From an uncultured Methanobrevibacter sp. (GTDB lineage: Archaea; Methanobacteriota; Methanobacteria; Methanobacteriales; Methanobacteriaceae), in assembly GCF_902774605.1 (NCBI RefSeq), contig NZ_CACYJE010000008.1, positions 1 to 58,495 of the forward strand: DNA of 58,495 nucleotides. The letters are read 5' to 3'. The position numbers and the translations under genes are program-made. The notes below the pieces were generated by a model. The model was not told where the DNA came from. It ran no database searches and was given only the letters and a program-made list of their open reading frames with translations. Below are positions 1,357 through 57,190 of the stretch, in pieces. Position 1 is the stretch's first letter. The number at the start of each line of letters is the position of its first letter.

Positions 1357-2522
1357 CCAACCAACTCCTTAACGTCCTTTAAAGCCAAACCGGTATCCTT
1401 AGCTATTTTTTTCAAATCCTCAAACTCGGGACGCCTTGAAATGACCTTGCCGTTGACGTATCCAATCTTGAAGGTCACATCATAATCCTTGCCCTCAACA
1501 TTAACTGTCACGGTTTCAAATTCCCTTTTGGCAATTCCTCGATGCATGTTCGGTGCAATCCTAATGCCTAAACTGCCAGTCTCCTTGAATATTGTGTCAA
1601 TAATCCTTTCACGATTGTCCCTTCGGGAAATGACCTTAAGAAGGCTTCCCTGACGATTCTTCTTCATGATGATTGGTGTGACAGAAACGTCACTGGCTCC
1701 GGCATCCAAGAGCACGTCAAACAGATAACCGATTTCTTCGCCGGTCAGATGGTCAAGGTTGGTTTCAATGACATCGATTCTGTCGCTTTCGCTCATGTCA
1801 AGGGTTTCAATGATTCTTAAAACATTCGGATGGTCAAAGTCCTTGCGACCCGCACCGTAACCCACATTTGCCGGTTTGACTGAAGGAATGAATTCCTTGA
1901 TTTCGTCGCACAATTCCATATATATGGCTGAGCCTGTTGGCGTTGCAAGCTCACTGTCCACCGGACCTCCAAGCATCAGTGCACCCTTTAAAATCTCAAC
2001 AACTGCAGGTGCGGGAACGGGTATTGTTCCATGAGCTGTCTTCACCCTGCCTCCGCCGACGGCTATAGGAAGCCCTATTATCTTCTGTGAATCATATCCT
2101 AAACTGTAGTATGCGTAAACAGAACCTATCACGTCGGCGACAGCATCGCTGGCACCAACCTCATGGAAATGAACCTCTTCAAGGCTTTTGCCGTGAACCC
2201 GGCTTTCAGCCACAGCTATCCTTTCAAATATTTTACAGGCTGTGTCGATGACCTTTTCATCCAAATCCAATTCCCTGATTTTTGAAATGAAATCCTTAAA
2301 GTGAACCGAATGCTTGTGCTCCAGCATTTCAACATGGCAGAATGTGGAGTCGATGCCATGCTTTGACACTTTGGTGAATGTCACCTCAACTTCCCCGAAA
2401 TCATGTGCTGATTTTTCCATGACTTCCTTCAGTTCGCTGGCATCTGCTCCCAAATCAACAAATGCTCCTATTAACATGTTTCCGGCTATTCCGCTGGATT
2501 GCGGGTCGATAATGATTGTCAT
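1353..2522 (-). CDS. larC: LarC family nickel-insertion protein
   Basis: A 389-residue member of the LarC (DUF111) family. In lactobacilli LarC is a CTP-dependent cyclometallase that inserts nickel into the pincer cofactor of lactate racemase. Family hallmarks visible are the N-terminal DPQSSGIAGNMLIGA, the histidine-rich HFHEVGASDAVADVIG and SELATPTGSAI. It is one continuous frame, unlike species where larC is split into two frames. No larA, larB or larE is nearby, so the substrate is open; in methanogens a role in another nickel or cofactor process is possible. It is divergent from cbiS over a 62-base AT-rich gap that must hold both promoters. Confidence 0.85.
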   Translation of the reverse strand: MTIIIDPQSSGIAGNMLIGAFVDLGADASELKEVMEKSAHDFGEVEVTFTKVSKHGIDSTFCHVEMLEHKHSVHFKDFISKIRELDLDEKVIDTACKIFERIAVAESRVHGKSLEEVHFHEVGASDAVADVIGSVYAYYSLGYDSQKIIGLPIAVGGGRVKTAHGTIPVPAPAVVEILKGALMLGGPVDSELATPTGSAIYMELCDEIKEFIPSVKPANVGYGAGRKDFDHPNVLRIIETLDMSESDRIDVIETNLDHLTGEEIGYLFDVLLDAGASDVSVTPIIMKKNRQGSLLKVISRRDNRERIIDTIFKETGSLGIRIAPNMHRGIAKREFETVTVNVEGKDYDVTFKIGYVNGKVISRRPEFEDLKKIAKDTGLALKDVKELVG

Positions 2523-2584
2523 AATGATAAGTCCTATTGTATTATAATATAAGTTTAAATTAAATAATTAATATATATTATCAC

Positions 2585-3658
2585 ATGAAATTAAATATCA
2601 TCGAGAAGGATTATGGCATTTGCATCAATAATGCGAATCATTTCCTGGCGTTCAGCGATTTCACCGTAAGCGATGGAATCGACATTGTTGAAAACGTCAA
2701 TGTCATAAACGCCAAGGATGAATTCAACGCAACCGCTAAAAGGGCCGAGACATTCAACCAGTCTCAAGGCTCATACATTGCACAGGCAACCTCGAGCCTT
2801 GATTATTTCGCCAATGCATATGATGATTTGACAATTTTCACATTCATGAACAATGACGTTGTTCTCGAGCAGTTCACAGACAAGCTCCTTGTTGCAAACT
2901 CCCCTAAGGGATTTGTTGACGCCAGAATCAGCATAAGTCATGTGGTCTGCATCGACAAGGCAATCTCGCCAGGGGATTTGCTTAAAATATTCAAGCTGAT
3001 ATCATCCACAAAAGCAAATGCAATCGCCGACATGCGCCTGCCTCTGCATATCCGGAATATCCTTAACACTAATGATTTTCTGGCAGTACTGGCCAATATT
3101 CCTGAAAGCGATGATGAATCATTGGACATTAACAATTCGGAGTTTGATGATATTGATTTTGAAGAGCTGAAAACAAGAATCGGCGAAGCGATTGAGATAA
3201 GCATTGAAGACGCATTCGACAAGATGAATCTGACATTCGGCATTCTTGATTACCTGGTGGCTGAAGGAATCCTTATAGGTGACCTTGTCGAGGCGGGATT
3301 GGACATTCTTGCTGATGTTGACGTGACACAAAAGCTGAAGGACAGCATGGAAGCTGAAATACTCAACGCTTTGGCAGACGTCAATGTGGCGTCACTCATC
3401 ATGTCGGCATTAAGGATGGGTGAGGACATGGCCTGCAATGCCGTTCGTGAATTCAATGGGGATGGCTCAACCCAGTTCACAAGTGCCAAGGCTTTGGGGA
3501 TGGCAGTTGCAAATCAGATAGCCGGAACTAAGGCGATATTCAATTTCAACAAGTATGATGAATTAAAACCTGGAATAATATTTGGCCTGCCGCCAATGCT
3601 CAGCGAAGCGTTCGCAGGCTTGATTGCAGGTTGCGTATCAAAAATATTAGAGGAATAG
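2585..3658 (+). CDS. cbiS: CbiS-like bifunctional adenosylcobinamide amidohydrolase / alpha-ribazole phosphatase
   Basis: A two-domain protein of 357 residues. The C-terminal part (about 210-357) is a CobZ/phosphatidylglycerophosphatase A-like domain, with [17 protein letters not shown] and [14 protein letters not shown]; in archaea this family dephosphorylates alpha-ribazole phosphate. The N-terminal part (about 1-190) resembles CbiZ, which cleaves adenosylcobinamide to adenosylcobyric acid for corrinoid salvage, but it is divergent and I could not verify its key residues. The fusion matches the CbiS arrangement known from Methanopyrus. The cobS gene follows after 3 bases, which supports a cobamide role. 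The ATG at 2585 has no obvious ribosome binding site and a TATA-like stretch lies about 25 bases upstream, suggesting a nearly leaderless message. Confidence 0.75.
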
Positions 3659-3661
3659 ACA

Positions 3662-4444
3662 ATGGAAGATGACAGTTACTTTGAAGATGAGGAATTCTCA
3701 CCTACACGTTCGCTTTTAGGGCTTTTGACATTCTCGACAATACTGCCGATCAATGTATTCACATCAATCGAGTACATGACCAAGCTTACATGGGCATGGC
3801 CGTTCCTGCACATATTCATCGGTATTTTGGCGGCCGTCTGCGGTTATGTGTCACTTGAATTCCTGCACTTGAACTCATTTTTCACAGCAGCAATCGTTTA
3901 CGCGTTTCTAATGATAATAACTGGATACAATCACCTTGACGGCGTGATGGACATGGCTGACGGTGTCATGGTTCACGGAGAACCTGAACGCAAGATTATG
4001 GTGATGAAGGATTCAAGCGTGGGCGCCGGAGGAATGGCAACATTGTTCCTTGTGGCAAGCCTCACAATAGCCGGAATATATAACATACTTGATTATCACT
4101 TCATAGTTGGAATAATAATCTGTGAAATGACTGCAAAAACCTCCCTTGTAACAACAGCATTGCTGTCAAAACCATTGACACCGGGAATAGGCAGCTATTT
4201 CATAAACGAGATGAAAATACCTAATTATTTCGCATCAACAGTGGTTGTTGGCATCATCGCATACCTTCTTGGAGGATTCGTTGGAATCTGCGGAGTTCTT
4301 GGTGCAATAGTTTCAGGAATCATAATAGCCCATATCGCCAAGCGCAATTTCGTCCTTGCCAACGGGGATGTTCTTGGAATGAGCAATGAGGTTGGACGAT
4401 TGCTGTCATTGCTGTTCATGGCTGTAGCGCTATACTTCATTTAA
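3662..4444 (+). CDS. cobS: Adenosylcobinamide-GDP ribazoletransferase (cobalamin-5'-phosphate synthase)
   Basis: Integral membrane enzyme that joins activated cobinamide to the lower-ligand nucleotide, a late step of cobamide synthesis. The metal-binding signature NHLDGVMDMADGVM occurs about residues 92-105, and about six hydrophobic helices are visible. The length of 260 residues is typical. It follows cbiS with a 3-base gap and both act on the nucleotide-loop assembly stage, so the pair forms one operon. A methanogen needs cobamides for the Mtr complex. Confidence 0.95.
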   Translation: MEDDSYFEDEEFSPTRSLLGLLTFSTILPINVFTSIEYMTKLTWAWPFLHIFIGILAAVCGYVSLEFLHLNSFFTAAIVYAFLMIITGYNHLDGVMDMADGVMVHGEPERKIMVMKDSSVGAGGMATLFLVASLTIAGIYNILDYHFIVGIIICEMTAKTSLVTTALLSKPLTPGIGSYFINEMKIPNYFASTVVVGIIAYLLGGFVGICGVLGAIVSGIIIAHIAKRNFVLANGDVLGMSNEVGRLLSLLFMAVALYFI

Positions 4445-4459
4445 TCATTTTAATAAGTC

Positions 4460-4473
4460 AAAAGCAATATTGC
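4460..4473. repeat. Intergenic palindrome AAAAGCAATATTGC (copy 1)
   Basis: This 14-base element contains the perfect palindrome GCAATATTGC and matches the longer copy at 13567-13584. It lies just after cobS and before the candidate small RNA. It may be a protein-binding site; that is inference from its repetition in two intergenic regions. Confidence 0.35.
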
Positions 4474-4519
4474 AGTCGCCTGATGCATTGTTTTAAATAC
4501 TATTAGCGTTAAACATGGT

Positions 4520-4611
4520 GTTGTGAGAGAAAACCGCCATGCATGCATTTATATATTTGATTTACCATGAATGATGGTATCACCTCCTTCAATTTCCGGT
4601 GGTTTTTTCTC
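4520..4611 (+). ncRNA. Candidate small RNA with 14-bp closing stem and an exposed anti-Shine-Dalgarno sequence
   Basis: GAGAGAAAACCGCC (4525-4538) pairs with GGTGGTTTTTTCTC (4598-4611) over 14 base pairs including two G-U pairs. Inside are a small hairpin ACCAT-GAATG-ATGGT (4564-4578) and then ATCACCTCCTT (4579-4589), identical to the 3' tail of 16S rRNA. A TATA-like TTTTAAATAC ends at 4500, about 25 bases before the inferred 5' end, and the TTTTTT in the 3' arm could terminate transcription, giving an RNA of about 90 bases. The opposite strand instead offers a ribosome binding site AAGGAGGTGAT and a 19-codon reading frame (4509-4568), so strand and nature are uncertain. No Rfam family was recognised. 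Confidence 0.45.
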
Positions 4612-4653
4612 ATCAAATTTAAATATTCCAAGATTTAATAGTAAAATGATAAT

Positions 4654-5193
4654 ATGAAAGTAAATGTTTTAAGACTAGACCACAGATTGAAAAGGGACAC
4701 CCGTATCACCACCCATGTATGCCTGACCGCAAGAGCATTCGGAGCAAGCAAAATATACCTTGCCGGCGAACGCGATAACGGATTGATGGATAATGTGCGC
4801 GACACATCGTCAAGATTCGGAGGCAATTTCGAGATAGAGTACACTGAAAGCGCAATGGGCGTAATCAACAAGTGGAAGGCAGATGGCGGAAAAGTGGTTC
4901 ACCTGACCATGTACGGGTCACAGGCACATGAAATCGCACCTGAAGTGCGCGAGGACGGTTCAGACATTCTAATAATCGTCGGAGGATCCAAGGTTCCGGG
5001 CAAAATCTACAAGGCAGCCGACTGGAACGTGTCAGTGACAACACAGCCTCACTCAGAAGTGTCCTCATTGGCGGTATTCCAGCACCTGCTGATGGACGGC
5101 AAGGAATTCGAGTTGGAATTCGAAAACCCCGTGCTTGAAGTGATACCGACCGCTCATGGAAAAACCGTCAACATCCATGATGAGAACCGTTAG
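4654..5193 (+). CDS. trm56: tRNA (cytidine(56)-2'-O)-methyltransferase aTrm56
   Basis: A SPOUT-class archaeal enzyme that methylates the ribose of C56 in the T-loop of tRNA. The N-terminus MKVNVLRLDHRLKRDTRITT and the cofactor-knot region GGSKVPGKIYKAADWNVSVT followed by PHSEVSSLAVF are characteristic, and the length of 179 residues is normal. TTTAAAT at about 4617-4623 is a plausible TATA box placing the transcript start a few bases before the ATG, so the message would be almost leaderless. The gene overlaps DUF763 tail-to-tail by 4 bases. Confidence 0.93.
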   Translation: MKVNVLRLDHRLKRDTRITTHVCLTARAFGASKIYLAGERDNGLMDNVRDTSSRFGGNFEIEYTESAMGVINKWKADGGKVVHLTMYGSQAHEIAPEVREDGSDILIIVGGSKVPGKIYKAADWNVSVTTQPHSEVSSLAVFQHLLMDGKEFELEFENPVLEVIPTAHGKTVNIHDENR

Positions 5194-6284
5194 GATATGA
5201 AGTCATCAAGTCTTTTAATGGCTTTTAACTTATCATCTTTTTTTATTCGAGCCATTTCCAAAGCGTCGCGAATGGTTTCAATCGAATTGTCATAAACCTC
5301 ACGGTCAACAGGATAAGGAAAACCGTCCTTGCCACCGTGGGTGAAACTGTACTTGACAGGGTCCTTCCAGCTTGCAGGTTCACCGTAAACCAGATCGGAT
5401 ATCAATGCCAATGCCCTTATTTTCTTGGGGCCGATGCCCTGAAGGAGAATCAGCTCCTCATAGTTTTCAGGCTGTATCTCATAGGCCTTTGTCAGGACTT
5501 CAAACTCCTTGTCGCTGATGTCCATATCTAGTACTGGATGGTGGGGCGGCAAAGTGAAGTCATCCAGCAGCAGCTGATTGTCCTTTCTTTTGAAGTATTG
5601 TCTTAAATGGGTGGGATTGTCATTAATCAAATCCACGCTGATTTTCTGCGCTTCCTTGCTTTCCTCAGATGGCATGTTCAGGGTATTGGGGGTCGTCATG
5701 TCGCAGGATATTCCGCTGTGGGGGTCGTTTAGAAGGTCATCCACTTCAGACCCCAGCCAATGGTATCTTCTTGCGTACTTGTTTTCAGTGTTGAGGCCCT
5801 GCTGCACAACCGCCCAGTCTCCTTTTTCGGTTATGAAGAAGTTGTGCTGGTATAATGTGTAGCCGTCCTGAATGCAGGAATTGTCGATTTTAGCGGACAG
5901 TCTACTTGTCTCAATCAGCTTCTCAGTGGTTTTTGTCTTTAGATTGAACACTTCACCTGCATGCTCAATTCCCATTGGGGTTTTGCGTGACTTGGCACCC
6001 TTGCCCCCGGTCAGGTATATTCCATGCTCTTCGGGCGATAGTGATGCCTTGAGGGCTCCCAGTGTGGTGGTGGTTGTTCCGGAGGAGTGCCAGTCAAAGC
6101 CCAGTACACAGGAGAATGCCTGGAACCAGTATGGATTGGAGATTCGGTTCAGAAATTCGTTTAGACTGTACTCTTCAATGATTACTGATGCCAATGCTCC
6201 GGATAATTTGACCATTCTTGAAAACAGCCAGCTTGGAGGTTGGCCCCCATGCAGTGGCAGGTTGACGGCTCCTCTTCTTTTCAT
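5190..6284 (-). CDS. DUF763 domain-containing protein
   Basis: A 364-residue protein matching the DUF763 family of archaea and some thermophilic bacteria, function unknown. The typical N-terminus RRGAVNLPLHGGQPPSWLF is present, followed by TGGKGAKSRKTP, and near residue 285 LLQGIGPKKIRALALIS looks like a helix-hairpin-helix, suggesting nucleic acid binding. A TATA-like element CATATAAATA lies about 20 bases upstream of the ATG, so translation is probably leaderless. The family has been suggested to act in DNA metabolism, but nothing in this neighbourhood confirms that. Confidence 0.85.
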   Translation of the reverse strand: MKRRGAVNLPLHGGQPPSWLFSRMVKLSGALASVIIEEYSLNEFLNRISNPYWFQAFSCVLGFDWHSSGTTTTTLGALKASLSPEEHGIYLTGGKGAKSRKTPMGIEHAGEVFNLKTKTTEKLIETSRLSAKIDNSCIQDGYTLYQHNFFITEKGDWAVVQQGLNTENKYARRYHWLGSEVDDLLNDPHSGISCDMTTPNTLNMPSEESKEAQKISVDLINDNPTHLRQYFKRKDNQLLLDDFTLPPHHPVLDMDISDKEFEVLTKAYEIQPENYEELILLQGIGPKKIRALALISDLVYGEPASWKDPVKYSFTHGGKDGFPYPVDREVYDNSIETIRDALEMARIKKDDKLKAIKRLDDFIS

Positions 6285-49779: not shown

Positions 49780-50343
49780 ATGGCTGATAAAAAAGCTCCT
49801 GCAGATGGCTGGCCTGTAATCAGTGGAGACTACATTGTAGGGGACCCGGAAAGTCCCGTGGCAGTAACCACTCTCGCTTCACACATCGAAGCGGAATTGT
49901 CCGGAGCAGCTATTGCAGGACCATGCAAGACAGAAAACCTTGGAATAGAAAAGGTGGTGGCAAACATCATATCCAACCCAAACATCAGATTCCTGATACT
50001 TGCGGGTGCGGAAGTGCAAGGCCACATCACCGGTCAAAGCTTCAAGGCATTGCACGAAAATGGTGCAGACCCTGACAAGAAGAAAATCATAGGAGCAACC
50101 GGAGCAATCCCATTCGTTGAAAACGTTCCTCTTGACGGTGTTGAAAGATTCCAGCAACAGCTTGAAATAGTTGACCTGATCGACACTGAAGACATAGGGG
50201 CAATACAATCAAAAATCAACGAATGCGTAGAGAAAGACCCTGGAGCTCTCGAAGCAGAACCGATTGTCATGGAAGTCGACGAGGAAAAAAAGAAATTAAG
50301 AATCGTCGATAAAAAAGAAGAAAAAGTTGAATCTGAGGCATAG
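49780..50343 (+). CDS. mtrA: Stand-alone soluble MtrA homologue (methyl-H4MPT:CoM methyltransferase subunit A-like)
   Basis: A 187-residue protein matching the corrinoid-binding cytoplasmic domain of MtrA, which carries the methyl group between tetrahydromethanopterin and coenzyme [48 protein letters not shown] and [20 protein letters not shown] are conserved, including the histidine (H82) expected to bind cobalt. Unlike canonical MtrA (about 240 residues), the C-terminal membrane helix is missing and replaced by a charged tail, and no other mtr genes are adjacent, so it is a soluble paralogue. TAGGAGG precedes the ATG. Possible roles are cobamide storage, repair or methyl transfer. Confidence 0.9.
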
Positions 50344-53137: not shown

Positions 53138-53482
53138 ATGAACCAAAAAATCAACTGGAGCGAAAAAGTAAAAGACCTAGACAAAACAATCAGAGAAGAA
53201 ATTGGTATAGAAGAAGAAAACGAAGCAAAGCACATCTTGATCAAAGTCCAGACAAAGTCTGCCGAAGCAATCGAACCGGCATTCATTGTTGGAGAAGATG
53301 AACTTTTCCTCGATTTATTCGTCCTTTCACCACAAGGACCAGGAATCACATCAACCGCTGTTCTAAAAGACAACATCCAAAGCGTAGGCGTAATCGGAGG
53401 AGTGTCAGCCGAAAAGGTCGACCCATCAGAAATCCCCGACGAGACTCACCTGCTCGATGACGTCTCAGGACTATACCAATAG
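53138..53482 (+). CDS. Small hypothetical protein at the start of the accessory island
   Basis: A 114-residue acidic soluble protein with no recognised family. The first 30 residues look helical, then beta-rich segments (HILIKVQTKSAEAIEPAFIVG, DELFLDLFVLSPQGPGITSTA, SVGVIGGVSAEKVDP). It has a ribosome binding site GTGAGG before the ATG. It is followed by a strong hairpin and then the HsdS-like gene, so it may be a separate unit. Function not assignable. Confidence 0.65.
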   Translation: MNQKINWSEKVKDLDKTIREEIGIEEENEAKHILIKVQTKSAEAIEPAFIVGEDELFLDLFVLSPQGPGITSTAVLKDNIQSVGVIGGVSAEKVDPSEIPDETHLLDDVSGLYQ

Positions 53483-53483
53483 C

Positions 53484-53510
53484 TAGTTTTTGGCACACCA
53501 CCAAAAACTA
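53484..53510. other. 10-bp perfect hairpin between 53138 gene and the HsdS-like gene
   Basis: TAGTTTTTGG (53484-53493) and CCAAAAACTA (53501-53510) pair perfectly around CACACCA. There is no T-run after it on the plus strand. CACCAAAAACT recurs at about 53551-53561, just before the HsdS-like gene, so it may be a binding site rather than a terminator. Confidence 0.45.
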
Positions 53511-53578
53511 ATGCTCATTCACCAACCATTGTCAAACATAACAATTGAACACCAAAAACTCATTTTAAAGTGATTAAA

Positions 53579-54148
53579 ATGAAAAAAGTGAAACTCGAAG
53601 ATATGGCAGAAATATTTTCAGGGCTCTCCTACAGGAGATACCTGGACGATGCCGGCGAAAGATTCCAGGTCATCGTTCAAAGATCAATCAAAAAGGACGG
53701 CGAACTATCAGACTTCGATGAGCTGGCACTCAAAAGCAACATCAAGGAAAGATACTTCACACGCCAAAACGACGTATTGATGAAAATGCCATATCCATAT
53801 GATGTAGTATGTGTAAAAGAGGAAGGATTAGTCATAAGCGACCGAATAGCCATCATCAGACTCAAAAAAGACTATGACCCTGACTTTATCACACACCTAC
53901 TCACCAATACCCATATAAAAAAGCAATTGCACGAACTGGGAAGCAGCGAAAAAATCCCACACACTTCCCTGAAAGAGATAAAACAGTTGGAACTGATCGT
54001 GCCTGACCTAGACACCCAAATCAAGTACGGCGAACTTCTAAACACAATCAATGACAAGATATATGCAGATCAGCGCCAACTTGAATATGACAGGAACCTG
54101 AAAGAGGCAATACTCAACGATTTATGGGGTGAAGACAATGAAGGCTAA
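53579..54148 (+). CDS. Half-length HsdS-like DNA specificity protein
   Basis: A 189-residue protein resembling one target-recognition half of a type I restriction specificity subunit. VKLEDMAEIFSGLSYRRYLDD is the typical TRD start, and IPHTSLKEIKQLELIVPDLDTQIKYGELLNTINDKIYADQRQL is the conserved end of the TRD plus the central helix. A normal HsdS (about 400 residues) has two TRDs, so this may act as a dimer, as known for half-subunits. The ATG at 53579 follows GTGAT. The next gene, an HsdM-like protein, starts inside its 3' end. Confidence 0.8.
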   Translation: MKKVKLEDMAEIFSGLSYRRYLDDAGERFQVIVQRSIKKDGELSDFDELALKSNIKERYFTRQNDVLMKMPYPYDVVCVKEEGLVISDRIAIIRLKKDYDPDFITHLLTNTHIKKQLHELGSSEKIPHTSLKEIKQLELIVPDLDTQIKYGELLNTINDKIYADQRQLEYDRNLKEAILNDLWGEDNEG

Positions 54149-55823
54149 CTCCAGAAAATCAAACAACTACTCAATTTTAAGAAACCTCACATCCAAGGCA
54201 AGAAGCTTCAAGCTGCCCGATGAGATAGACTACATCGTGATATACACCTTTTTATACAAGTACTGCTCAGACAGCCTGAAGGACCATTTCCTCATGACCC
54301 TGGAGGACAAGGAGATGACCCTGGATGAGGCATACGATTCCAATTACTATCAGGAAGTCTTGAAGGAAGACTCAATGCACTTATACGGATTTCACATTGA
54401 AAAGCCCGATGCATTCATAGATGAAGTGATAAACAACAGCTACTCCGACAGGTTCTTCCTTTCAGAATTCTTCACTGTATTTCCACGAAACATCACATTT
54501 AGCAAGGATTCAAAGGAGAAGGAATACTTCGACTTCCTCTTTAAAACAATCTCACAGGAGATAAAAATCGACAAGTACGAATTTGAAAGCGAGGTCAAAC
54601 TAGCCATCAAGGAAATAATCTATGCGATATCAAAACTTGACCTGTACGAGTCAGCATTCTCATTCGGCAAGGTCTTTGATGTGCTGTCATCATCAAGGAT
54701 GATGCATATCCAGCTGACACCAGACTACATTTCACAATTGCTCTCAGCACTGATCAGCTGCGACAAGACCTCCATCAAAAAAGCATATGACCCCTTCCTG
54801 AAGGATGGAAACACCCTGATGAAGCTGTCAGACGAATGCGAAATGGGAGTTACATATTACGGCAAGGAACTAGACAGGCTGACCTACTGCTACGCAATCA
54901 CAAGATTCCTGATCAATCACTTCAACCTGGATTATGTGGAATTCAGAAACGAGGATGCAACAGAATCCATAGACATTGACGGAGCATCATTTGATGTTAT
55001 AATGTCAAAAATCCCAGTGAAAATAAGGAATTACCACTCCTCCAAGCAAAACAGGAACAACTTTGAAATAATCCGGAGAAACAAGAGAACCGAACTCGAA
55101 AAGGTCCTGCTCAGCGAGTTCAACATGAACAGCGACTCATTCGCAAAGGACTCTGAACTGAACAGTGCACTGGAAAACCTGCTTGAAAAGATAGATGTTG
55201 AAGCGGCTTCAGATGTGGAATTCTCCGGCGAGTACGAATCCTTAAAGGACAGTGAATTTCTGTTTTTAATTAATCTGATAGAATCGCTTAAGGACGATGG
55301 GGTCATGGCAATAAGCATTTCGCAAAACTTCCTGTTTAAGAATTCCCTAAACACCCTTAGGAAATACTTGACCCTGGAGAAGAATTACATTGACACGATA
55401 ATAAGCGTTCCAGAGGAAATCGGAAGAAGAAGGCCTGAAGTCATCATTGTATTCAAGAAGAACAGAAGCACTCAGGGAATACTCTTCATTGACATTTCAA
55501 AAGAGTATGAAACACAAAAAAACAGGATATTGTTCCCGGGCCTCTTTAGGAGAAACCTGATTTTCGCCGATGAAACAATTGCTAAAATCAAGGATGTTTA
55601 TTCCAAAAAGCTCACAATAAACAAGTTTTCAAATCTCATCTCCGTCAGAGACATTATCAAGAACGATTTCAACCTCTCAGTGTCCCGCTATGTCGACACT
55701 TTTGAAGGCAAGTTCATAAGATTGGAGGATTTGAAACAGGAAAAAGCAGAAATAGAATCTAATGTCAAGGAATTGAACTTGAAAATAGAAAAAATGATGG
55801 ATGAGTTAAATATCCGTTTCTAG
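54138..55823 (+). CDS. HsdM-like N6-adenine methylase homologue with degenerate catalytic motifs
   Basis: A 561-residue protein with the HsdM layout: N-terminal helical domain (DYIVIYTFLYKYCSDSL), a segment matching the Y/FxTP region (MHIQLTPDYISQLLSALI), then the methylase core. The SAM motif I, usually DPxCGSG, reads DPFLKDG (about residues 218-224). Motif IV, usually NPPF/Y, reads SKIP in FDVIMSKIP (285-293). Both are lost, so methylation is unlikely, while YGKELDRLTYCYA still resembles the usual YGQE.. helix. The C-terminal helices (about 520-560) are coiled-coil-like, fit for HsdS contact. It overlaps the HsdS-like gene by 11 bases; no HsdR is nearby. GGTGA precedes the ATG at 54138. Confidence 0.8.
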   Translation: MKANSRKSNNYSILRNLTSKARSFKLPDEIDYIVIYTFLYKYCSDSLKDHFLMTLEDKEMTLDEAYDSNYYQEVLKEDSMHLYGFHIEKPDAFIDEVINNSYSDRFFLSEFFTVFPRNITFSKDSKEKEYFDFLFKTISQEIKIDKYEFESEVKLAIKEIIYAISKLDLYESAFSFGKVFDVLSSSRMMHIQLTPDYISQLLSALISCDKTSIKKAYDPFLKDGNTLMKLSDECEMGVTYYGKELDRLTYCYAITRFLINHFNLDYVEFRNEDATESIDIDGASFDVIMSKIPVKIRNYHSSKQNRNNFEIIRRNKRTELEKVLLSEFNMNSDSFAKDSELNSALENLLEKIDVEAASDVEFSGEYESLKDSEFLFLINLIESLKDDGVMAISISQNFLFKNSLNTLRKYLTLEKNYIDTIISVPEEIGRRRPEVIIVFKKNRSTQGILFIDISKEYETQKNRILFPGLFRRNLIFADETIAKIKDVYSKKLTINKFSNLISVRDIIKNDFNLSVSRYVDTFEGKFIRLEDLKQEKAEIESNVKELNLKIEKMMDELNIRF

Positions 55824-56762
55824 AGGGATGTTCCCAATGATTTCATCATTGATTTTTTCCTCATCCTTTTTGAAATATGACAGATGGACAATATTGTCCT
55901 TGAAAAGATACACCGTTCCAAGGCCGGCATCGTTTTCAAAAGTGAAGGAGTCTTCAATTCCGGTAGTGTCCTTTTTTTCAAAGGAGGAGTCAAAGGCATT
56001 GTTCATGACCTCTTTTGCAGCCTCAATGTTTACTGTGAAAACAGTATTCTTTATTTTTGAATCGATCAGGTAGCTTTTCAATATTTTCTCATGGAAATCC
56101 CTGTATATTCCACTGTTCAGGAACAGCTCAAAGCCACGGATTTCACCGTCAACCATTACCATAACGCCGGTTTGCCCGTCAAGGATCTTGAACTTCTTAA
56201 GTATTTCCTTATGGTTGGACTTGATGTTCTCGTAACTTTCCTCCATTGCACTGGTGGGGGAGGCGTAATCGTTTTCCGATTCGAGAGTGTCAATGGATGA
56301 CCAAATCACATCCTGGTATGATGTGGAAACCCTTGAGGCATACTCCTTGGCTTTTCGGGTATTGTAATTGGCCATGTACTCTGATTGCTTGAATTCGCTT
56401 TTATAGGCCCAGCGGTTTTTCTCGCTGCAGCTTACAGGAATCTTCATCTTGCTTTTGGCATCAATCAGGATGGTTGCGTTGACGATTCGGTTCTGGTCTC
56501 CTCCAACGACCTCTTCACCGTCGATTAGGATTAAGGGGGTCACGGCATGGTTTTCAACGATGAGCGTATTGACCTGGGAACTCTCGCATTCCTTGACTTC
56601 AACAAGGCCCAGTTCCAAACCCTTTTTAAGTGTCAACAGGTCAATGTAGTTCCTTTCACTTCTCAAGGGTATGACCGCAATGTTCTCATGCACTTGGGCG
56701 GGCAGCAATTCAACATGGGGGTTTAAGTTAACGTCCGGTTCAATGCTCATCATTTCAATCAT
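55806..56762 (-). CDS. ARPP-1 family domain protein (DUF6569)
   Basis: A 318-residue cytosolic protein. LILIDGEEVVGGDQNRIVNATILI (about 77-100), IPVSCSEKNRWAYKS (108-122) and the later GVMVMVDGEIRGFELF are the core of the ARPP-1 family, described by genome context as part of prokaryotic conflict-related gene sets; its biochemical activity is unknown. The start is the ATG at 56762 or the better conserved MSIEP nearby at 56750. The gene is downstream of and overlaps the HIRAN gene by 8 bases, and overlaps the HsdM-like gene by 18 bases tail-to-tail. Confidence 0.78.
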   Translation of the reverse strand: MIEMMSIEPDVNLNPHVELLPAQVHENIAVIPLRSERNYIDLLTLKKGLELGLVEVKECESSQVNTLIVENHAVTPLILIDGEEVVGGDQNRIVNATILIDAKSKMKIPVSCSEKNRWAYKSEFKQSEYMANYNTRKAKEYASRVSTSYQDVIWSSIDTLESENDYASPTSAMEESYENIKSNHKEILKKFKILDGQTGVMVMVDGEIRGFELFLNSGIYRDFHEKILKSYLIDSKIKNTVFTVNIEAAKEVMNNAFDSSFEKKDTTGIEDSFTFENDAGLGTVYLFKDNIVHLSYFKKDEEKINDEIIGNIPLETDI

Positions 56763-57153
56763 CCGCCGGATAATTCTTTTGAATGTAGGCTATGTCGATT
56801 TCAGTTGGGTTTTCACACATGTAATTGACGTCGCTTTCAGGATCTTCAACTTCCTTGACGAATTCATCGGCAGTCAACACTTTGGCTATTGTGATGTTGT
56901 TGTGTATGAATTTGATTTTGGCGAAGTACTCATCAGTGATCTTGTCAAAAATCCTGCCTGAACTCATGCATCCCTTGACAACTGTATTTGTGCTGTTTGC
57001 AACGTAACCGAACTTTCCGAAATACCTCATCTCGCAGGCTATCGCTTCGGTGTCGTACTTGTTGTCCGGTTCCTTTACAAGCTTCACCAGTCCGTTCAGC
57101 TTCAACGGCTTTTCACCGTGCATGTTTTGAAATGCGATTATTGTAATGTACAA
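56755..57153 (-). CDS. HIRAN domain protein
   Basis: A 132-residue stand-alone HIRAN domain. EPDNKYDTEAIACEMRYFGKFGYVANST matches the HIRAN core that in eukaryotic HLTF and similar helicases binds the 3' end of single-stranded DNA, and VKGCMSSGRIFDKI is the typical following part. The TTG at 57153 is chosen because AAGGTGA lies 5 bases before it; GTG at 57162 is an alternative. It forms a two-gene operon with ARPP-1. In bacteria, single HIRAN proteins occur in DNA-stress or defence contexts. Confidence 0.82.
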   Translation of the reverse strand: MYITIIAFQNMHGEKPLKLNGLVKLVKEPDNKYDTEAIACEMRYFGKFGYVANSTNTVVKGCMSSGRIFDKITDEYFAKIKFIHNNITIAKVLTADEFVKEVEDPESDVNYMCENPTEIDIAYIQKNYPADD

Positions 57154-57190
57154 AATTATCACCTTGTGTATATATTGTGTTTTGAAGTAT

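What the first reader, a model, noticed from the sequence alone, without database searches (positions are those of the whole stretch)
53579..57153. Possible undescribed DNA-targeting system: half HsdS, catalytically dead HsdM-like protein, facing an ARPP-1/HIRAN pair
Four accessory genes lie head-on in 3.6 kb with only short overlaps: an HsdS half-subunit, an HsdM homologue whose SAM motif (DPFLKDG instead of DPxCGSG) and catalytic NPPF (SKIP) are lost, and a HIRAN-ARPP-1 operon. There is no HsdR. A dead methylase held by a specificity subunit would bind a DNA site without modifying it, so it could silence, sense or mark DNA. HIRAN binds 3' DNA ends and ARPP-1 appears in conflict gene sets. 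Together they may be a defence or DNA-stress module. That the two pairs act together is inference from adjacency.
Basis: partly seen in the sequence, partly recalled or inferred. Interest (0 to 1): 0.85.

Follow-up and report, generated by a model that had tools for sequence, protein, structure and literature searches.

The report
Dead methylase kept as DNA binder
Rumen methanogens carry a gene pair derived from a DNA-methylating enzyme whose chemical active site is gone but whose DNA-recognition part is kept unusually constant across species, so the pair is probably a DNA-binding complex for the cell's own chromosome and not a defence against foreign DNA.

Summary
The four genes are real (S 53579-54148, M 54138-55823, ARPP-1 55806-56762, HIRAN 56755-57162).

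The half-HsdS plus HsdM-like pair is found in 40 of 67 genomes of the genus (Methanobrevibacter) at a fixed locus, without HsdR. All 40 M proteins lack DPxCGSG and NPPF, yet evolve under purifying selection (dN/dS about 0.04-0.14) and keep the HsdM fold in a model. Elsewhere in the family other R-less half-S/M pairs show the same loss: the catalytic Asn is gone in 71 of 74 M without HsdR nearby, but kept in 15 of 17 with HsdR nearby. Loss arose at least twice.

In three non-catalytic clades S is more conserved than M (139 of 141 pairs); in active half-S systems it is the reverse (21 of 21). That indicates a fixed target. I propose a non-catalytic M2S2 complex that binds one palindromic split site.

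HIRAN-ARPP-1 is a separate module already described. It lies next to S-M in 27 of 40 genomes, elsewhere in 5, and is missing or a fragment in 8. A loose link is not excluded. Target and function are untested.

The parts
53579..54148 (+). half HsdS (189 aa): one target-recognition domain plus one about 40-residue dimerisation helix; ATG start (a GTG 9 bp upstream, 53570, is also possible)
   Evidence: Pfam Methylase_S and PADLOC Specificity_I; AF2 model pLDDT 91, helix 144-183; Foldseek to S subunits 7vs4, 1yf2, 3okg and half-S-like Esub1 8vsr; 40 orthologues 62-93% identical to the window
54138..55823 (+). non-catalytic HsdM-like subunit (561 aa); motif I DPFLKDG and motif IV SKIP in place of DPTCGSG and NPPF
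   Evidence: Pfam N6_Mtase; 40 of 40 orthologues lack both motifs; dN/dS 0.04-0.14; AF2 pLDDT 82, best PDB match HsdM 3lkd, TM 0.76 by target
55806..56762 (-). ARPP-1 domain protein (318 aa), partner of HIRAN; loosely linked to S-M
   Evidence: PF20208 E=7.7e-78; Cys112, Gln90 and others invariant in 28 sequences; adjacent to M in 27 of 40 neighbourhoods
56755..57162 (-). HIRAN domain protein (135 aa), directly upstream of ARPP-1
   Evidence: PF08797 E=2.5e-7; next to ARPP-1 also where S-M is absent
53480..53530 (+). conserved non-coding stem-loop (TAGTTTTTGG-CACACCA-CCAAAAACTA) plus ATGCTCATTCA block between the upstream ORF and S; role unknown
   Evidence: conserved in 17 genomes of the window's clade; no Rfam match
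53138..53482 (+). conserved 114-aa ORF (Up114) of unknown family that marks the locus; not shown to be part of the system
   Evidence: upstream of S-M in 40 of 40; also in 4 genomes without S-M at that place; no Pfam or NCBIfam match

Best explanation
The S-M pair is the type I methyltransferase core turned into a non-catalytic, sequence-specific DNA-binding complex. Two half-S subunits probably dimerise through their long helix and each holds one M, giving M2S2. The two identical recognition domains would read a palindromic split site. M is kept because in type I enzymes neither S nor M binds DNA alone, so M acts as clamp and scaffold and no longer as a methylase. Because the recognition domain is nearly constant across the genus, the site is probably a fixed set of chromosomal positions, and occupancy there, by blocking or shaping transcription or replication, is the most likely function. 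Shown by sequence: motif loss, conservation, selection, absence of HsdR, retained fold (by model), inverted S/M conservation. Inferred: complex formation, DNA binding, palindromic target, regulatory or architectural role.
For: 40 of 40 M lack motif I GxG and motif IV NPPF while nine genuine HsdM keep both. dN/dS of M is 0.04-0.14. M is best conserved in residues 367-561, including the C-terminal helix, 0.57-0.60 within the family against 0.40 for the catalytic region. S is more conserved than M in 60/60, 44/45 and 35/36 pairs of three non-catalytic clades, but less in 21/21 pairs of active half-S systems. Across the family the catalytic Asn is lost in 71 of 74 M with a half-S and no HsdR nearby and kept in 15 of 17 M with HsdR nearby. 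The locus is fixed: Up114-S-M in 40/40, KefB and MtrA-like flanks in many. 16 of 40 genomes have no HSDR_N match anywhere. No viral contig carries the S family. Models keep the HsdS and HsdM folds. Literature: neither S nor M binds DNA alone and NPP(Y/F/W) is the catalytic site (PMC3874165); half-HsdS dimers read palindromes such as ACCN5GGT, and a repressor resembling HsdS is noted (PMC6158711).
Against: No binding site was found: no split palindrome is shared by the region upstream of S in all 40 genomes, so autoregulation is not supported. No complex was modelled or tested. The altered catalytic region is itself partly conserved (P219, D286, S290, P293), so another activity or ligand is possible. 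The pair is absent in 27 of 67 genomes, so it is not essential to the genus. Recurrent proximity to ARPP-1 in two genera hints at conflict biology.
Confidence: 0.5

Rival explanations
1. A conflict module: S-M holds or senses a DNA site and HIRAN-ARPP-1 acts on DNA ends or ADP-ribose-like products when the site is disturbed by invading DNA.
For: Adjacent and convergent in 27 of 40 genomes. ARPP-1 in 32 of 40 genomes with S-M against 8 of 27 without (Fisher p=5e-5, not corrected for phylogeny). ARPP-1 near a different non-catalytic half-S/M in 4 of 9 g12 genomes. ARPP-1 occurs in conflict gene sets (PMC9503650).
Against: Eight S-M genomes have no ARPP-1 or only a fragment, and five have the pair at another locus. 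The pair occurs without S-M. In G038 it sits beside KefB without S-M, so both may merely share a neighbourhood. Not near S-M in g9. The recognition domain is constant.
Confidence: 0.15
2. The M is still an enzyme: it methylates DNA by unusual residues, or does another SAM- or nucleotide-dependent reaction.
For: The replaced motifs are themselves conserved ([DN]PF[LMI]x[DN][GA]; S[KR][IV]P) and the fold is kept. Other non-catalytic clades keep parts of motif I (GSAS in g9).
Against: The catalytic Asn is replaced mostly by Lys or Arg and the GxG glycines by bulky residues. Different clades replace the Asn by K, R, Q, V, H, I or C, which fits loss better than one new chemistry.
Confidence: 0.12
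3. The pair supplies specificity to an active HsdM or HsdR encoded elsewhere (a METTL14-like helper or alternative S for a trans system).
For: Some genomes, including the window's, hold an ordinary half-S type I system elsewhere. In G027 a non-catalytic pair abuts HsdR and an active M (L185).
Against: 30 of 40 S-M genomes have no other HsdM of this kind at E<=1e-3 (HsdM of other types could be missed) and 16 of 40 have no HSDR_N match.
Confidence: 0.08
4. A decoy or guard for phage anti-restriction proteins (Ocr, ArdA) that bind the M2S core.
For: The model keeps the M fold that such inhibitors bind; PDB matches include Ocr- and ArdA-bound complexes.
Against: A decoy does not need a constant recognition domain; no viral partner was seen.
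Confidence: 0.06
5. A decaying remnant of a restriction system.
For: Lost catalytic motifs and no HsdR.
Against: dN/dS 0.04-0.14, intact frames in 40 genomes down to 41% identity, new conserved motifs.
Confidence: 0.02

Closest known systems
M.AhdI-like 'Type 1 1/2' methyltransferases (2M+2S, separate M and half-S genes)
   Same: Separate M and single-TRD S; expected M2S2 with a palindromic split target (PMC3874165, PMC6158711).
   Different: M.AhdI is an active methylase with a cognate endonuclease. Here motif I and IV are lost, no endonuclease is nearby, and S is more conserved than M.
Type I restriction-modification (EcoR124I/EcoKI; HsdM 3lkd, 7bst)
   Same: HsdM and HsdS folds by sequence and model.
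   Different: No HsdR, no catalytic motifs, one TRD per S, constant TRD, fixed locus.
HIRAN-ARPP-1 two-gene neighbourhood (Iyer et al. 2022, PMC9503650)
   Same: HIRAN directly upstream of ARPP-1, ARPP-1 with its conserved Cys and Gln.
   Different: Nothing essential; here often next to S-M, and in G037 joined by a NAMPT-like gene.
Esub1, a half-S-like streptococcal protein bound by phage paratox (PDB 8vsr, 8vsq)
   Same: Best structural match of the half-S (TM 0.77).
   Different: 18% identity; whether it has a partner M could not be checked here (paper not in the library).

Membership tests
Type I restriction-modification system | HsdR subunit encoded with HsdM and HsdS | tested here: not met
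   No HsdR in the window or 39 neighbourhoods; 16 of 40 genomes have none anywhere
Type I restriction-modification system | HsdM with motif I DPxCGSG and catalytic NPP(F/Y/W) | tested here: not met
   0 of 40 orthologues
Type I restriction-modification system | HsdM and HsdS fold and homology | tested here: met
Type I restriction-modification system | Variable target-recognition domains relative to M | tested here: not met
   S more conserved than M in 139/141 pairs of three non-catalytic clades; reverse in 21/21 active pairs
Type 1 1/2 (M.AhdI-like) methyltransferase | Single-TRD S encoded beside M | tested here: met
   189-aa S, one TRD and one long helix, adjacent to M in 40/40
Type 1 1/2 (M.AhdI-like) methyltransferase | M2S2 assembly on a palindromic split site | not testable with these tools
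   No complex prediction or binding assay available
Type 1 1/2 (M.AhdI-like) methyltransferase | DNA methylation activity | tested here: not met
   By motif only; no methylome available
HIRAN-ARPP-1 two-gene module | HIRAN gene directly next to ARPP-1 gene | tested here: met
   27 of 27 S-M-linked cases and cases at other loci
Anti-phage defence system | Protection against phage or plasmid | not testable with these tools
   Needs experiments; indirect signs (fixed locus, constant TRD, no viral copies) point away

The most novel reading that the evidence does not exclude
Methanobacteriaceae have repeatedly converted R-less half-S type I methyltransferases into non-catalytic chromosomal DNA-binding complexes with fixed split-palindrome targets: a class of regulators or chromosome-organising proteins made from restriction-modification parts, present in several genera of the family.
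Probability: 0.4. Interest if true: 0.8.

Novelty: new variant of a known kind. Interest (0 to 1): 0.64.

Why it matters
R-less HsdM/HsdS genes are usually annotated as orphan methylases or restriction remnants. Here a whole family of archaea keeps such pairs after the active site is gone, with the recognition part under the strongest constraint. If binding is confirmed, it would show restriction-modification enzymes becoming sequence-specific chromosomal proteins, would explain misannotated 'type I methyltransferases' in methanogens, and would give a tractable system for asking what a methyltransferase core does once methylation is removed. The S-over-M conservation test is a simple screen for such conversions elsewhere.

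Tried and rejected
Pseudogene or frameshift artefact: rejected by dN/dS and 40 intact homologues. Mobile or viral origin: S family not in IMG/VR; the best plasmid matches to M are ordinary HsdM at 24-27% identity. Autoregulatory palindrome upstream of S: none common to all 40; the conserved TGG-N7-CCA stem-loop is clade-specific, replaced by other stems elsewhere, and its half-site orientation does not fit type I geometry as described in PMC3874165. Known RNA element there: none. Four-gene system as an obligate unit: rejected. Phylogeny-corrected test of S-M with ARPP-1: not done, since no marker tree for the M-less genomes was built. Papers on conserved non-catalytic HsdM/half-HsdS pairs: none found in five searches, which cover open-licence papers only.

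Full report
What is there. S is a half specificity subunit, M an HsdM relative, and the convergent pair is HIRAN then ARPP-1. The window is contig C8 of a 2.14-Mb genome. Named relatives from the genome collection are all Methanobrevibacter, many from rumen and other gut metagenomes, including M. thaueri.

M has lost its active site, and this is a conserved state. Forty of 67 genomes in the genus, the window's own included, encode a full-length member (the others 41-85% identical to it); ordinary HsdM match far more weakly. In all 40 motif I reads [DN]PF[LMI]x[DN][GA] or close to it and the motif IV region reads S[KR][IVLF]P or close variants, while nine genuine HsdM of the same family read DPTCGSG and NPPF. 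Motif IV is the catalytic site and motif I the SAM site (PMC3874165). Close pairs give dN/dS of 0.04-0.14 for M and 0.03-0.11 for S, so these are working proteins. The AF2 model (pLDDT 82) keeps the whole HsdM fold (3lkd, TM 0.76 by target). The half-S model (pLDDT 91) is one recognition domain and one 40-residue helix.

The pair is a unit at a fixed place. S lies directly before M in 40 of 40. A conserved 114-aa ORF is always upstream, an MtrA-like gene is usually before that, and a KefB-type antiporter gene often follows. Empty or altered versions of the site exist: G053 has the upstream ORF facing ARPP-1 directly with S-M absent; G036 and G074 have the upstream ORF without S-M. No HsdR is nearby, and 16 of 40 genomes have no HSDR_N match at all.

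It is not only this genus. A profile search with S found half-S genes across the Methanobacteriaceae. I read 52 further loci and aligned their M. M with an HsdR within 5 kb keep the catalytic Asn in 15 of 17. M with a half-S and no HsdR have lost it in 71 of 74, counting the 40 of the window's family; the kept cases are L188 (NPPF), L181 (NPPA) and L189 (NPTY), and L179 was left out because its contig is short. Replacements differ by clade: S-Q-I-P-F in g9, S-V-P-Y in g12, H-P-P-F, Q-P-P-F, K-P-P-F, V-P-P-F, I-P-P-F elsewhere. On the tree, starred branches force at least two separate changes; g8 (L082, L177) is nested among intact HsdM. Long branches limit finer claims. G041 (L081: DPFLGTG, VPPF) is an intermediate form within the genus. 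The counts are not independent events, so the Fisher value (2e-12) only describes the table.

The strongest functional clue is inverted conservation. In ordinary restriction systems S varies more than M. In seven active-type half-S loci (six with HsdR seen nearby, L179 on a short contig) S was less conserved than M in 21 of 21 pairs (mean 0.53 against 0.81). In the window's family, g9 and g12 non-catalytic clades, S was more conserved than M in 60/60, 44/45 and 35/36 pairs. Constraint has moved from chemistry to recognition. With the known rule that neither S nor M binds DNA alone (PMC3874165) and that half-S dimers read palindromes (PMC6158711), the simplest reading is a non-catalytic M2S2 that occupies fixed chromosomal sites. 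Complex, binding and role are inferred. I could not find the site: no palindrome upstream of S is shared by all 40.

HIRAN-ARPP-1. This pair is one of the two-gene neighbourhoods described by Iyer et al. 2022. It lies convergent to M in 27 of 40 S-M genomes, elsewhere in five, and is missing or only a fragment in eight. It stands without S-M in several genomes, and in G038 beside KefB without S-M, so a shared neighbourhood alone may explain adjacency. Yet in genus g12 ARPP-1 lies within 5 kb of a different non-catalytic pair in 4 of 9 genomes (G113, G116, G117, G121; HIRAN confirmed beside it in G113 and G121), far more than random placement would give (4e-8, ignoring shared ancestry). A loose functional or ecological link is therefore open; an obligate four-gene system is not supported.

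Verdict. Its interpretation is right about a dead methylase that probably binds DNA and unproven about a joint defence module. The general pattern, R-less half-S/M pairs turned non-catalytic across a family of archaea, appears undescribed in the open papers I could search.

Noticed in passing
window 53480-53530: A 45-nt non-coding block (stem-loop with loop CTCACCA-like, then TAATGCTCATTCAACCACC) is nearly invariant in 17 genomes right after the upstream ORF; other clades have different stems with similar 7-nt loops near S. No Rfam match.
   Followed up: partly
window 53138-53482: Conserved 114-aa ORF without Pfam or NCBIfam match, found in 44 of 67 genomes and always upstream of S-M where that pair exists.
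   Followed up: partly
L034, L036, L038-L043, L055, L061 and others, between the upstream ORF and S: An extra about 130-aa ORF (ending like HHLALWAKTIGANMVPGRVFGT) sits between the upstream ORF and S in one sub-clade; short relics of it (CATGCTTATTTCAACCA) seem to remain in others. Family unknown.
   Followed up: no
L111 (G037) 2302-6103: ARPP-1, a NAMPT-like gene (PF18127, PF04095), HIRAN and a second ARPP-1 lie in a row, tying HIRAN-ARPP-1 to NAD metabolism.
   Followed up: partly
L168-L170, L174, L176 (genus g12): Small ORFs of the MKYISNGFSPKML type lie next to the non-catalytic half-S/M pairs; the one tested (L168) matches STIV_B116-like (PF08960). Large ORFs of unknown family (565-827 aa) follow M in some.
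   Followed up: partly
L185 (G027:C198): A non-catalytic half-S/M pair (QPPF) directly abuts HsdR and an M with NPPF, a possible accessory specificity arrangement.
   Followed up: no
G000:C6:1-4143 (L073): The same genome carries a second half-S (33% identical) with a 908-aa HsdR and an M cut by the contig end, an apparently ordinary type I system.
   Followed up: partly
window 49780-50343: Stand-alone MtrA-like protein (PF04208), a frequent neighbour of this locus across the genus.
   Followed up: no
G079:C78 (L196) and G091:C25 (L197): A second kind of non-catalytic half-S/M pair in the same genus (DPFADEAT / SIPPFG), present besides the window type in these genomes.
   Followed up: partly
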